Assembly: GCA_022072455.1 (NCBI GenBank)
Contig: JAJVHY010000003.1
Span: forward strand, 1 to 64,000
Source of the DNA: Verrucomicrobiia bacterium
Lineage (GTDB): Bacteria; Verrucomicrobiota; Verrucomicrobiia; Palsa-1439
Direction: 5' to 3'
Length of the DNA: 64,000 nt
Both the position numbers and the translations under genes were made by a program. The number at the start of each line of letters is the position of its first letter. Position 1 is the stretch's first letter. The notes under the pieces are model-generated. The model was given only the letters and a program-made list of their open reading frames with translations. It had not been told where the DNA came from and ran no database searches. Below, piece by piece: positions 27,063-36,593 of the stretch.

Positions 27063-28991
27063 ATGGAAGGTTCATCTTCACGGAGTGATTGGCTGGCTGG
27101 TTTGGCGGCGGCGGCCGTGGTTGGGCTGTTTGGTTTGATGTTGGCCGGTTTTTTTGTGCCGGCCTACGACGGCACGGATGAGAATGGCTACCTCTGCGCG
27201 GCCCGGCGGCTGGCGTTGACCGGCGCGGCGACCAAACACACGACCCATCCGCTCGAATTCGTCAGCGGGAACGTTGTGCAAACTGGTGACTCGGTGTTTT
27301 ATCCGAAGTATCCCTTGGGATACCCGTGGCTGGCCGCGTTGGCGTACCGGCTTGGTGGGGAATCGGCCGCGTTTTGGGTGAATCCGCTTCTCGCGACGTT
27401 GGCAGTGGCTGGAATTTTTCTGTTGGCGCGGGCAATGGTGGGCGCGCTGGCTGGGGTGCTGGCGGCGTTGGTGTTGGCGACGAATTCGTTGCACGCGGGA
27501 TTTGGGTTGTCGGCGTTGAGCCATTCAGGGGCCATTTGTTTCGCGATTTGGGGGATGTTTTACCTCTGGCGTTGGACGCAAAGCGGTGGCTGGTGGAACG
27601 CTTTCGCCGCCGGCGGGTTCACGGCCTACACGTACACGATCCGGTATTCGGAGGCGTTGCTGGTGGTGCCGGTGGTGGCGATGGTTTTGTGGCGGTATTT
27701 CAACCGGGCAGAAGGGGCAACCCCCACGGCACGGTTGTTGGCGGGGCGTCGGTGGCGCTGGGAAGTCGGCGGGATGGCGCTCGGGGCGGCGCTGTTGCTC
27801 GCGCCGTTGTGGGCGTATCATTGGAGTGCGTTCGGCGCACCGTGGAGGAATGGGTATGATCTGTGTGGGGAATCGACCGGTTTCGCGTGGAAGTGGTTTC
27901 AGGAGAATTGGTGGTTGATGTTGACGAGGTTGAACGCGCCGGGATTGCTGTTGATTTTCCCGCTCGGATTGGCTGGGTTGGCGTATCTGACGGCCCATGA
28001 TCGAAAGCGCGCGCTCTTGCTGGGATTGTGGTTGGTGCCGACCTTGTTGTTGTACTCGGCGTATTACTGGGCGCCGCAGGGTGAGGGGCGAAGCTATGTC
28101 CGGTTTTTTGTGAGCGTGTTTCCGCCGTTGATTGTGTGTGCGCTGGCGTTGTTGTGCGAGGCGGTCAAGCCGCGGCCGGGTTGGTCGCTGGCGTTAGGAG
28201 GATTCTTTGCGGTGGTGACGACGTACAATTTGCGGAGCACGTTGACGGATTTGGAGGTTCAGATGCAACGGTTGCAGCACATCCGCCGGTCATGGGATAT
28301 GGTGCAGCGGCATATGCCGGCGGGTTCGATTCTTTTGGCGGCGCGCGGGGGATTGAATCATCTCGAATTTGCCGGTGATTATGAGTTGTATGCGTTGGAG
28401 ACGTTTGACCGGAATGCCATTCAGAGCAGTCTCAAAATCTTGAACCATAACGACCCGCACCCCCTGCAGCGCCGCAAGGCGCAGGAACTCGCGCGAACAG
28501 TCGGCGCGCTGACGGACGGGCAGTTGGCCAATCTGCAACGCTCGTTGCTGGCCAGCAATGTCGCCAGTGGCCGCAGGGTGGCGGTGGTTTGTCCGCCCGA
28601 TCAACTGCGCAGCGTGCGCGGCCGGTTGGGTGAGGCGTTCATTTATGAGCCGATGACCGAATGGTTACAGACCAGTTTTGGCAAGACCGGTGAGGTGCGC
28701 GTGTCCGCCATGCGGTTGTATCAGTTGCAGGCCCGCCCACCGGGGATGCCGAGCGGGGAGAGTTTGGCGGCGTTGGAGGAAAAGGCTGATCAACTTGAGT
28801 TTCAGATGAAAGTCTTGCGGGCCGACTTCGCCACCGCCTATCCTGGCGCCCAAAAGAGTTTGGATGAAATCCGAAACTCCGAACAACAACTGCGCGAGTT
28901 GCGCGAGAAAATCAAACGCCAGGCCGGCCGCAAGCCTCCTGCACCGGCCACGAATCTTGCCGGCCGCGCTGAATTGAGAACGACCCGATGA
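27063..28991 (+). CDS. GT-C fold membrane glycosyltransferase (GT39/ArnT-like) with coiled-coil C-terminus
   Basis: 642 aa. About ten membrane helices between residues 12 and 395; the first loop carries the acidic pair in [10 protein letters not shown] expected for catalysis in polyprenyl-phosphate sugar transferases of this superfamily. The last 250 residues are soluble, ending in a coiled coil (about 560-625, [18 protein letters not shown]) and a basic tail, unusual for the family. Its stop overlaps the ATG of the prepilin gene (ATGA), and an anchored unknown protein follows, so the three form an operon. Glycosylation of a surface or pilin-like protein is a possible role, inferred from context only. 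Confidence 0.78.
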
Positions 28992-29662
28992 AACGCCGTG
29001 GTTTTACTTTGATCGAATTATTGGTGGTCATCACCATCATCGCCATTCTGGCCGCTTTGCTGTCGCCGGCCCTCGCGTCGGCGCGGCGCAAGGCGCGCAG
29101 CACCGATTGCCTGAACAATCTCAAGCAACTCGGCCTCGCTACGCTGTCGTACTGGGACGATCACGCGGGGCAACTCGCGGGACTCAGCGGCGTGTTTCCA
29201 GCGTGGAATGGTTCTGGGCCCAACGACTGGGCCGCTTGGCCGCGCGAGATCCGTCCTTATGTCGGCTCGCTCAAACCCTTCACTGACATTGGCCGTCCGT
29301 CATGGATGCCGGAGTTGCCGATTGATTACTACTTCAATCTTCTACCAGCGTACGTGGCGGCCGGCAGTACCGGCCAAGTGTTTGCCGTCGATTCAAAAGC
29401 TATCGCCAACGCGTCGGCTTTTATTATCTATAGCGATGATCTGTGGATCCGCGGGCTGACGGATGATCTGGACCCGACCAATGAAAAAGATGACAAAACG
29501 GGCTTTTCGAGCTTATCTTCGTCGAACTACCCGCCGGCGCACGATGGCTACGCGAATTTCGTTTTTGCCGACGGCCATGTCAGTTCGCACTATAAATTTG
29601 ATCTGGGGCAGATGACCTACTGGTATCACAAACTCGCCAATTGGCAGGCCACTTTACCGTAA
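28988..29662 (+). CDS. Prepilin-type protein (H-X9-DG family)
   Basis: 224 aa. A type IV prepilin N-terminus ([19 protein letters not shown]), cleaved before Phe by a prepilin peptidase, gives a hydrophobic assembly helix. [16 protein letters not shown] follows as in the planctomycete/verrucomicrobial pseudopilin family, and near the C-terminus [12 protein letters not shown] is the conserved DGHV-type motif. These pseudopilins occur in large numbers per genome and their individual roles are unknown. The start overlaps the stop of the glycosyltransferase gene (ATGA). Confidence 0.9.
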
Positions 29663-34514: not shown

Positions 34515-34660
34515 CCAGTTCTTTGTGAACCATGTGTCGGCGCAGGGAAGGCCGTGAAATTCGGCCACAGTGGCGCTGCTGTAACTGGATACGAAAGCCC
34601 AACAGCCACCCAAACGGGGAAGGCGGGCCGGTAGGTTCGAAGCCAGAAGTCAGAACAACG
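34515..34660 (+). ncRNA. Cobalamin (B12) riboswitch
   Basis: Conserved blocks in the correct order: AGGGAAGGC at 34544, GTGAAATTC at 34554, CTGCTGTAACTGG at 34575, GCCACC at 34605, GGGGAAGGC at 34616, and the B12-box-like GAAGCCAGAAGTCAGAAC at 34639-34656. GTTCT at 34518-34522 can pair with AGAAC at 34652-34656 to close the structure. It lies in the leader of the PEP-CTERM gene, whose AAAGGAG ribosome site is about 40 bases downstream. I see no clear terminator, so control is probably at translation initiation. Confidence 0.88.
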
Positions 34661-34706
34661 GTCGACGCATGTCAGTAATCAACCCTTCGTACCAAAGGAG
34701 TCTGTC

Positions 34707-35666
34707 ATGTTGCGTCAACGTATCTTCGCCTGCGCGCTCGCGCTGGTCGTCCCGTCGGTTGCCAGTTTTGCTCTCACGGAAGATTTTTCTTCCGACCCAT
34801 TCGTCAATTGGTCGTTCGGCATTGGCGGCGCCGATCCCGGCACCAACCGGTTTGATTGGAATGCCGGTGCCGCTCCCACTTACGTCGGGGATCCGACCGG
34901 TGAGTTAAATCTCCACCTGAATTCGTCTCTGCCCACCGTGCGACTTGACCGACCGTTGGGGGTGACGGTGACCGACACCGACAGCTTCTCCTTGACGACG
35001 CGGTTTTCGTATTCGTTGACGAGCGCGCCGGGGGATCAGTTTATGCAAATCTCGTTCGGGCTGGTGAACAGCACGCTGACCGGGGGCGATCGCACGGGAT
35101 CGCTGTTGAACTTCGGGAGTGACAATGTTTTTCATACTCTCGAGTTCAACTACTTTCCGAACGTCTCGACCTTTTTCGTCACAGGACCGACTTTGACGCC
35201 GACGGTGTTTGGCGCACAAAAGGGCAGCGGCGATGCGTTTGCCAATTTTGCGACCAGTTTCTACGGTGACAGCGATCTCGGCGATAATACAGTCGGGATT
35301 ACCGAGCTGCCCCAAAATCAGACGCTCGAAGCCGGCTTGGCATACAATGGTGCGACCAAAGTTCTCACGCTCAGTTTGAGCCGGGTCGAGGCAGATGGCT
35401 CAACCACGTTGCTCGTGACGGAGGTGCCGCCGGTGGATTTGGTTGCGGCCGGTTATGATACCAACTTTCCGTTCGTGGTGAATTCGCTGGCCATCATGGC
35501 CTACCAAGACGGTTTTACCAGCAGCGGGGATCCATCCTTGGTGGCGGATTTGACGTTTCAGAAGTTTGATTTTGCGGTGGTGCCGGAGCCGACGACCAGC
35601 TTGCTCGTGCTGGGCAGCTTAGGTCTGTTGATCTGTGGCCGGCGCTTCCGCCAGAAGCTGTCGTGA
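34707..35666 (+). CDS. PEP-CTERM surface protein under B12 riboswitch
   Basis: 319 aa. Signal peptide (about 1-24), then a beta-rich domain resembling a lectin-like jelly roll (strand pattern around [14 protein letters not shown] and [14 protein letters not shown]-like segments). The PEP-CTERM sorting tail has [18 protein letters not shown] followed by CGRRFRQK: the PEP motif, a helix and basic residues. Such proteins are sorted to the envelope or exopolysaccharide by an exosortase. The gene follows a cobalamin riboswitch, so it should be repressed when B12 is plentiful. That suggests a role in corrinoid capture or in a B12-dependent lifestyle; this is inference. It overlaps the next prepilin gene (GTGA). 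Confidence 0.85.
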
Positions 35667-36412
35667 AAAAACGGGCGTTTACGCTGATCGAGCTGTTGGT
35701 CGTCGTCGGCATCGTGGGACTGTTGAGCGGCTTGTTGTTACCGGCCCTCAAACAGTCCCGCGAAGCCGCGCGAAGCGCCGCTTGTTCCTCAAACCTGCGG
35801 CAGATGGGGCTGGCGATGACGATGTACTTGGATGATTACCAGCGCTACTTTGCATACTTCACGACGGTGGGGAGCGCCCGGCTGTGGTATTTTGGTCTGG
35901 AGTCGCCCTACAATCCAGCCGGAGCACCCGGCGCAAGGGCGATTGATCTGACAAAGGCCAAGCTCTATCCCTACATCAACTCCCTGCACGGCGTCGAAAT
36001 CTGTCCGAGCTACGATTACCGGTCGCCGTTGTGGCGGAAAAAATTCGACCAGATCACAGCGGGGTACGGTTACAATCTCTACGGGCTGACCACCAATAAC
36101 GTCGGCAAACTCCCCGGCGAAATCACCAAGCCGGCGCAGATCCTGTGTTTTGCGGATGCCGCCCAGATCAACACCTTCCAGGCACCGGCCTCCAGTCTCA
36201 ACCCGATGATCGAAGAGTTCTATTTCATCAGTTTCAAGAGCGGCACCGACTTGCCCAATACCCACTTCCGCCACAATGAACGCGCCAACGCGCTCTTTGT
36301 GGACGGTCACGTCGCCGCCCGCGCGATGGCCCCGGGGACACAAGATAGTCGCATCCCTGCCGCAAAAATTGGCCGCTTCAATCCCGATGGTGACACCAGC
36401 CTATTCTGGTAG
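35663..36412 (+). CDS. Prepilin-type protein (H-X9-DG family) in the B12 riboswitch operon
   Basis: 249 aa starting at a GTG that overlaps the PEP-CTERM stop. N-terminus [20 protein letters not shown] with the prepilin cleavage site. [20 protein letters not shown] is the family block after the helix, and [20 protein letters not shown] gives the H-x(n)-DGHV motif. Because translation is coupled to the riboswitch-controlled gene, this pseudopilin should share B12 control. Its end overlaps the DUF1289 gene in another frame. Confidence 0.9.
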
Positions 36413-36593
36413 TCCGGTCCAGTCGCCGTGCCGAAACATCTGTCAGATGGACGCGGCGGACCAGTTTTGTCGAGGCTGTGATCGCACTCGGGACGAAATT
36501 GCGGCGTGGCCAGGAATGACCGCCGCCGAAAAGACGGCAGTGCTGCAACAGGTGCAGCTTAGGCGCCGATTGTTTCGCGAATCCGCCCGGTAA
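36387..36593 (+). CDS. DUF1289 protein (Cys-rich, Fe-S-like)
   Basis: 68 aa. [20 protein letters not shown] is the hallmark four-Cys arrangement (CxxxC...CxxC), followed by [17 protein letters not shown], both typical of DUF1289. The domain probably binds a metal or Fe-S cluster; its role is unknown. The ATG at 36387 is the last sensible start before the motif, and it overlaps the end of the prepilin gene by 26 bases, so it may be read from the same riboswitch transcript. Its 3-prime end overlaps glmM antisense by 35 bases. Confidence 0.82.

What the first reader, a model, noticed from the sequence alone, without database searches (positions are those of the whole stretch)
34515..36593. Cobalamin riboswitch controlling a PEP-CTERM surface protein, a pseudopilin and a DUF1289 protein
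Seen: all conserved B12-riboswitch blocks, then a PEP-CTERM gene, a prepilin gene coupled by GTGA, and a DUF1289 gene overlapping the prepilin. Known: these riboswitches usually control B12 synthesis, transport or B12-independent isoenzymes. Here the targets look like an envelope-sorted beta-rich protein and a pilus-like component. Inference: a surface corrinoid-capture or scavenging apparatus not matching BtuB/BtuCDF.
Basis: partly seen in the sequence, partly recalled or inferred. Interest (0 to 1): 0.82.

Follow-up and report, generated by a model that had tools for sequence, protein, structure and literature searches.

The report
Pilin cassette replacing vitamin B12 receptor
A vitamin-B12-sensing RNA switch in this bacterium controls a small set of surface genes (an anchored ligand-binding-type protein, a dedicated pilin and a cysteine-rich protein) that, across its phylum, stands in exactly where other species keep the standard outer-membrane B12 receptor BtuB and never occurs together with it, suggesting a previously undescribed way for bacteria to capture vitamin B12.

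Summary
An Rfam cobalamin riboswitch (53.4 bits, the only one in the 4.8 Mb genome) precedes PEP-CTERM, prepilin and DUF1289 genes. It is not an isolated oddity. In Verrucomicrobiota one pilin subfamily, one copy per genome among up to >100 prepilins, sits behind a cobalamin riboswitch in 63 of the 71 best class hits, and in 9 of 10 hits from other classes.

In the window's own family the slot riboswitch-X-glmM holds either this cassette or a riboswitch-controlled TonB receptor (BtuB type). Class-wide, 109 genomes have the pilin, 140 have BtuB and none have both (expected 40).

Surface genes sharing the cassette include homologues of proven B12-binding proteins: BtuH-type domains (top PDB profile hits 8BLW, 7BIZ) and DUF4465/BtuJ. 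The window-type jelly roll is fused to the BtuH-type domain in seven loci.

The genome has MetH, a BtuFCD-like importer and exosortases, but no BtuB and no cobyric-acid synthase. Best explanation: a B12-repressed, exosortase-anchored corrinoid-capture system whose pilin substitutes for BtuB and feeds BtuFCD. Regulation, linkage and exclusivity are shown; B12 binding by the window protein and pilin-driven uptake are inferred. No paper in the searched library describes it.

The parts
34521..34680 (+). Cobalamin riboswitch aptamer (RF00174), full length
   Evidence: 53.4 bits, GA 31.5; sole copy in genome
34683..34700 (+). Possible expression platform: CCCTT (34683-34687) can pair with the Shine-Dalgarno AAAGGAG (34694-34700); no room for a terminator before ATG 34707, so control is probably translational (inference)
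   Evidence: sequence; pairing in the MFE fold, but that fold is no better than shuffles (z 0.14)
34707..35666 (+). PEP-CTERM (exosortase-sorted) surface protein, 319 aa, legume-lectin/ConA-like beta jelly roll, family A1
   Evidence: TIGR02595; pLDDT 83.5
35663..36412 (+). Dedicated prepilin/pseudopilin of the B12-riboswitch subfamily (A2), GTG start coupled by GTGA; conserved AQINTFQxPASxxNPMxEExY-type motif
36387..36593 (+). DUF1289 small cysteine-rich protein (likely start ATG 36387); in 15 sister pilin cassettes a Cys-rich CWC protein is found instead

Best explanation
The operon is a B12-repressed corrinoid-acquisition cassette that does the job of the outer-membrane receptor BtuB. When corrinoid is scarce, the riboswitch allows expression of (1) an exosortase-sorted PEP-CTERM jelly-roll protein that captures corrinoid at the cell surface, (2) a dedicated type IV-like pilin, made in the inner membrane and probably assembled into a short pseudopilus, that brings the captured corrinoid across the outer membrane or presents it to the periplasm, and (3) a small Cys-rich accessory protein. 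BtuF/BtuCD, encoded elsewhere in this genome (G000:C10), then imports the corrinoid for MetH. Shown here: riboswitch, operon, class- and phylum-wide linkage, single-copy pilin, exclusion with BtuB, shared slot with BtuB, homology of partner surface proteins to known B12 binders, and absence of cobyric-acid synthase and of a BtuB-like receptor. Inferred: B12 binding by the window's jelly roll, pilin assembly, the route across the outer membrane, and the role of DUF1289.
For: Riboswitch. Pilin subfamily in 109 of 384 class genomes, one copy each (two in 2) although up to >100 prepilin candidates exist per genome; cobalamin/AdoCbl riboswitch upstream on the same strand in 55 plus 8 = 63 of 71 best hits, 52 of 56 at E<1e-80; 9 of 10 in other classes, the tenth on a truncated contig. 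Exclusion: 109 pilin against 140 BtuB genomes, 0 both, expected 39.7; both states inside 6 families and 4 genera; 0 overlap for the 10 pilin genomes of other classes. Slot: glmM lies convergently downstream of the cassette or of the TonB receptor in all 9 riboswitch-bearing genomes of the family, and in more distant ones; the glmM tree needs at least 3 swaps, and window genome and same-genus G004 are sisters in opposite states. B12-binder homology: A4 family hits the BtuH domains of 8BLW (E 4e-5) and 7BIZ (E 0.0046); DUF4465 (152-184 bits) lies between riboswitch and pilin in 6 of 9 other-class cassettes, a family shown to bind B12 (PMC13398666). Window-type jelly roll is fused with the BtuH-type domain in 7 loci, one in the same family. 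BtuF or BtuFCD in several cassettes, e.g. L012. Own genome: MetH, no cobQ above cut-off, exosortases, BtuFCD-like, TonB receptors best matched to heme, siderophore or copper models, no BtuB.
Against: The window PEP-CTERM protein itself is not profile-similar to the BtuH-like family; its best folds are legume lectins, so B12 binding rests on position and fusion. No translocation step is demonstrated, and the pilin's C-terminal domain has no structural relative. Secretin and pilus motor genes were not searched. The same-genus TonB receptor (G004) is divergent: best model is a siderophore receptor, TonB-B12 only fourth. Eight of the 71 best pilins lack a detected riboswitch, one of them (G278) in a single-contig genome. 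Exclusion depends on cut-offs (1e-40, 1e-90) and on the search scoring only the top few candidates per genome; the Fisher value ignores phylogeny.
Confidence: 0.78

Rival explanations
1. Capture only: the PEP-CTERM proteins bind corrinoid at the surface, like BtuH/BtuJ of Bacteroides, and the pilin is merely a scaffold that displays them; corrinoid crosses the outer membrane through some unrecognised TonB receptor or porin.
For: BtuH/BtuJ work as accessory binders next to BtuB in Bacteroides; the window genome still has five TonB plug matches; two riboswitch loci (L053, L062) combine BtuH-like hits with BtuB.
Against: Zero of 109 pilin genomes carry a BtuB-profile receptor and the cassette sits in BtuB's slot, which an accessory would not require. 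None of the four window-genome receptors tested against NCBIfam has the B12 model as best hit.
Confidence: 0.3
2. B12-starvation adhesin: under corrinoid limitation the cell makes a lectin-like protein and pilus to attach to B12-producing neighbours or algae.
For: Lectin-like fold of the window PEP-CTERM protein; pilins often serve adhesion (general knowledge).
Against: An adhesin would not be mutually exclusive with BtuB; cassette partners are homologues of B12-binding proteins and some cassettes include BtuF/BtuCD.
Confidence: 0.08
3. Coincidental placement: PEP-CTERM and DUF1559 prepilins are so common in Verrucomicrobiota that one happens to follow the riboswitch.
For: The window alone has other unrelated prepilins (28988-29662 and one more).
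Against: The same single-copy subfamily follows riboswitches in 63 of 71 cases and in other classes.
Confidence: 0.01

Closest known systems
BtuB/TonB-dependent B12 uptake (BtuB-TonB-BtuFCD)
   Same: Same cobalamin riboswitch control, same genomic slot (riboswitch-X-glmM), same inner-membrane importer type BtuFCD.
   Different: No beta-barrel receptor; a PEP-CTERM protein and a pilin take the place of BtuB, and the two never co-occur.
BtuH / BtuG1 H-domain of Bacteroides (PDB 7BIZ, 8BLW)
   Same: The A4 PEP-CTERM family in sister cassettes is homologous to this B12-binding domain; surface-exposed, riboswitch-controlled.
   Different: Anchored by PEP-CTERM/exosortase instead of a lipid; associated with a pilin instead of BtuB/BtuG; the window's own protein belongs to another jelly-roll family.
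BtuJ / DUF4465 (PF14717, IPR027828)
   Same: First gene of 6 of 9 other-class pilin cassettes; members bind B12, including one from Coraliomargarita, a verrucomicrobial genus (9HMU).
   Different: The published gene-context analysis reports TonB receptors, plug domains, ABC transporters and beta-propellers as neighbours; 'pilin', 'PEP-CTERM' and 'Verrucomicrob' do not occur in that paper.
DUF1559 / H-X9-DG prepilins of the PVC superphylum
   Same: N-terminal methylation signal, long N-helix, H-X9-DG.
   Different: A distinct subfamily, one per genome, with its own conserved motif and riboswitch control.
Pilus-like dextran-binding fibres of Planctomycetes (PMC5394234)
   Same: Pilus-like fibres bind a macromolecule at the surface and may aid its uptake.
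   Different: Genes of those fibres are not named in the passages read; substrate is dextran; no link to B12.

Membership tests
Cobalamin riboswitch (RF00174) | Covariance score above the gathering threshold over the full model | tested here: met
   53.4 against 31.5 bits, positions 1-189
Cobalamin riboswitch (RF00174) | Binds corrinoid and represses the downstream gene | not testable with these tools
   needs in-line probing or a reporter
PEP-CTERM/exosortase substrate | C-terminal PEP motif, hydrophobic helix, basic tail | tested here: met
   TIGR02595 17.3 bits, cut-off 16; Pfam PF07589 18.4, just under 20.7
PEP-CTERM/exosortase substrate | Exosortase in the same genome | tested here: met
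   PF09721 matches in G000, best 188 bits
Type IV pilin-like prepilin | Class III signal/N-methylation motif and long N-helix | tested here: met
   PF07963 and TIGR02532 above cut-off; helix 8-59
Type IV pilin-like prepilin | Assembles into a pilus or pseudopilus | not testable with these tools
   needs microscopy or genetics
BtuB receptor | TonB plug plus beta-barrel, B12 subfamily | tested here: not met
   absent from the cassette; no BtuB-profile match in the genome at 1e-90
BtuH-type B12-binding protein | Profile similarity of the window PEP-CTERM family to the BtuH-like family A4 | tested here: not met
   hhalign probability 0.4%; homology to BtuH is met only by sister-cassette family A4
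DUF4465/BtuJ | PF14717 match in the window PEP-CTERM protein | tested here: not met
   met by L192, L193, L196-L199
Corrinoid-acquisition locus | Corrinoid binding and B12-dependent growth phenotype | not testable with these tools
   needs protein and genetics work

The most novel reading that the evidence does not exclude
A TonB-receptor-independent outer-membrane vitamin uptake route: a riboswitch-controlled pseudopilus, loaded by exosortase-anchored B12-binding proteins, carries corrinoid through the outer membrane and has replaced BtuB (or been replaced by it) several times independently in Verrucomicrobiota.
Probability: 0.42. Interest if true: 0.95.

Novelty: new variant of a known kind. 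Interest (0 to 1): 0.86.

Why it matters
B12 is generally held to be too large for porins, and BtuB with TonB is the textbook way across the outer membrane. A phylum-wide gene cassette that never coexists with BtuB and occupies its slot implies a second solution, gives a first functional handle on one of the many PVC prepilins and on PEP-CTERM proteins (both large families mostly without assigned functions), and adds new candidate corrinoid-binding proteins relevant to B12 competition in soil, water and gut communities.

Tried and rejected
Chance neighbour of abundant families: rejected by subfamily linkage. Missed BtuB elsewhere in the genome: TonB receptors examined one by one; heme, siderophore and copper models rank first. 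De novo B12 synthesis making uptake needless: no cobyric-acid synthase above cut-off in any family genome. Window PEP-CTERM as a BtuH or DUF4465 member: not met. Pilin structure search: only the N-helix resembles known pilins, no lead on the C-domain. Family A5 ('FDDVxFWVGxGxNRAA') against the PDB: nothing significant. A sequence motif for the pilin: the strict regex catches only 28 of 41 aligned members, so it is descriptive only. Literature: seven searches combining riboswitch, corrinoid, B12 uptake, PEP-CTERM, exosortase, pilin, DUF1559, BtuB or Verrucomicrobia gave nothing describing the association.

Full report
1. The observation. The window holds one full-length cobalamin riboswitch at 34521-34680 (+), 53.4 bits against a curated threshold of 31.5. 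It is the only one in the 4.82 Mb genome, which is 95.6% complete. It is followed by a PEP-CTERM ORF (34707-35666), a prepilin ORF (35663-36412, GTGA overlap) and DUF1289.

2. Relatives of the riboswitch locus. Of 11 genomes of the window's family, 9 carry the riboswitch. In five (window, G006, G008, G009, G010) it is followed by the PEP-CTERM and prepilin pair; in four (G001, G002, G003, G004, the last from the window's own genus) by a TonB receptor, with a TonB-like gene in three of them. In all nine the next gene is glmM, convergent and 76-85% identical to the window's. The same arrangement with glmM is found with the pilin in L066, L094, L108 and L120 and with BtuB in L107. So one ancestral slot, riboswitch-X-glmM, is filled either by a receptor or by the cassette. 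On a glmM tree the two states need at least three changes, and the window genome and G004 are sisters (96/97) in opposite states.

3. Class survey. RF00174 is found in 226 of 384 class genomes. I read 5 kb downstream of 80 of these riboswitches, plus the family loci and L012 (about 91 in all), and classified genes with iterated profile HMMs. Thirty-four loci carry the window-type jelly-roll protein, 47 the pilin on the same strand, 22 a BtuB-type receptor; no locus has jelly roll and BtuB together, and only one (L053) has a divergent pilin with BtuB. Recurrent companions are a second PEP-CTERM family (A4, 'VVxYxPG'), a third (A5, 'FWVGxGxNRAA'), small Cys-rich proteins (CWC PF14375 or DUF1289), BtuF and sometimes BtuCD. 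L012 has jelly roll, pilin, BtuF, BtuC and BtuD in a row. CWC also follows the TonB receptor in G001 and G002.

4. The pilin is the constant part. A profile from 41 cassette pilins (A2, mean column identity 51%) finds, at E<=1e-40, 109 class genomes, with one copy each except two genomes with two, although up to more than 100 prepilin candidates exist per genome. Of the 71 best hits, 55 have a listed riboswitch upstream on the same strand (median 2.1 kb) and 8 more when upstream DNA was scanned. At E<1e-80 the figure is 52 of 56; one of the four exceptions lies at a contig end. In other classes of the phylum, 9 of 10 homologues follow a cobalamin or AdoCbl riboswitch; the tenth is on a truncated contig. 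Two further loci, L143 and L151, show sub-threshold AdoCbl-II matches.

5. Exclusion with BtuB. A profile of riboswitch-controlled BtuB-type receptors (A3) finds 140 class genomes at E<=1e-90. None of them is among the 109 pilin genomes (expected 39.7; Fisher 5e-27, not corrected for phylogeny). Six families and four genera contain both states in different genomes, so the replacement happened repeatedly. None of the ten pilin genomes of other classes has BtuB either. Limits: cut-offs, only the top few candidates per genome scored, mostly draft genomes.

6. Link to known B12 binders. A profile of the A4 PEP-CTERM family has as its two best hits among 177,635 PDB sequences the BtuH domain of BtuG1 in 8BLW (E 4e-5, two collinear segments) and BtuH2 in complex with B12, 7BIZ (E 0.0046) (identities of the entries from PMC10404256 and PMC8941943). 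In other classes the gene between riboswitch and pilin is DUF4465 in six of nine loci (152-184 bits). DUF4465 members were shown to bind B12, including one from Coraliomargarita akajimensis (PMC13398666; PDB 9HMU). The window-type jelly roll is encoded in one ORF with the BtuH-type domain in G010, L105, L110, L113, L126, L130 and L136. Hence the window protein occupies a position held elsewhere by proven B12-binding folds, although it is not itself similar in sequence to the BtuH-like family A4 or to DUF4465. AlphaFold gives a confident jelly roll (pLDDT 83.5) nearest to legume lectins.

7. Physiology of the window genome. MetH is present, no cobyric-acid synthase passes its cut-off, exosortases are present, and a BtuF/BtuC/BtuD-like operon at G000:C10 has a counterpart in G004. 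Five TonB plug matches exist; of the four tested, the best models are heme, Fiu-type siderophore, siderophore and copper receptors; the fifth is a 1005-aa protein not tested further. The genome therefore appears to need external corrinoid and to have the inner-membrane importer, but no recognisable B12 receptor.

8. Mechanism. Shown by computation: regulation by a B12 riboswitch, operon structure, conserved linkage, exclusion with BtuB, same slot, B12-binder homology of partners. Inferred: the PEP-CTERM protein captures corrinoid at the surface; the pilin forms a short fibre that moves it through the outer membrane, or holds binders in place; BtuF and BtuCD finish import. A precedent for pilus-like fibres binding an external macromolecule is known in Planctomycetes (PMC5394234). 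Translational control through SD sequestration is likely but unproven.

9. Novelty. The riboswitch, BtuH, BtuJ, BtuFCD, PEP-CTERM and DUF1559 are known separately. Their combination as a BtuB substitute with a dedicated pilin is not described in any paper found in the searched library; subscription papers and preprints are not covered. I file it as a new variant of riboswitch-controlled corrinoid acquisition; if the pilin does the outer-membrane step, it would be a new mechanism.

Noticed in passing
G000:C26, locus L175:1086-5347 (own genome, outside the window): A second prepilin + PEP-CTERM protein + Peripla_BP_2 binding protein + FecCD permease cluster without a cobalamin riboswitch; possibly the same pilin/PEP-CTERM principle used for another metal chelate.
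   Followed up: partly
L019:2678-4555 (G010) and L105, L110, L113, L126, L130, L136: BtuH-type domain and window-type jelly roll fused in one ORF; in G010 an internal PEP-CTERM motif lies between the two domains.
   Followed up: partly
L143:1894-1967 and L151:4849-4923: Sub-threshold AdoCbl-II riboswitch matches (33.9 and 25.1 bits, cut-off 36.5) upstream of pilin-family genes, suggesting a divergent riboswitch class controlling the same cassette.
   Followed up: no
L138 (G278, single-contig genome): Complete cassette (BtuH-type/jelly roll ORF and pilin) with no detectable cobalamin riboswitch, though a member of the same genus (G119) has one.
   Followed up: no
L057, L076, L079, L081, L082, L085, L096, L099, L100, L111, L113, L114, L118, L125, L126, L014, L017: Small Cys-rich CWC (PF14375) genes recur in both pilin-type and BtuB-type B12 loci; DUF1289 seems to play the same part in the window, L083, L088 and L104.
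   Followed up: partly
window 28988-29662 (+): Unrelated DUF1559 prepilin directly behind a glycosyltransferase-like membrane protein (27063-28991).
   Followed up: no
G009:C121 and G000:C13: MetH activation-domain matches that each contain one in-frame TGA; may only be the natural end of the gene or an assembly error.
   Followed up: no
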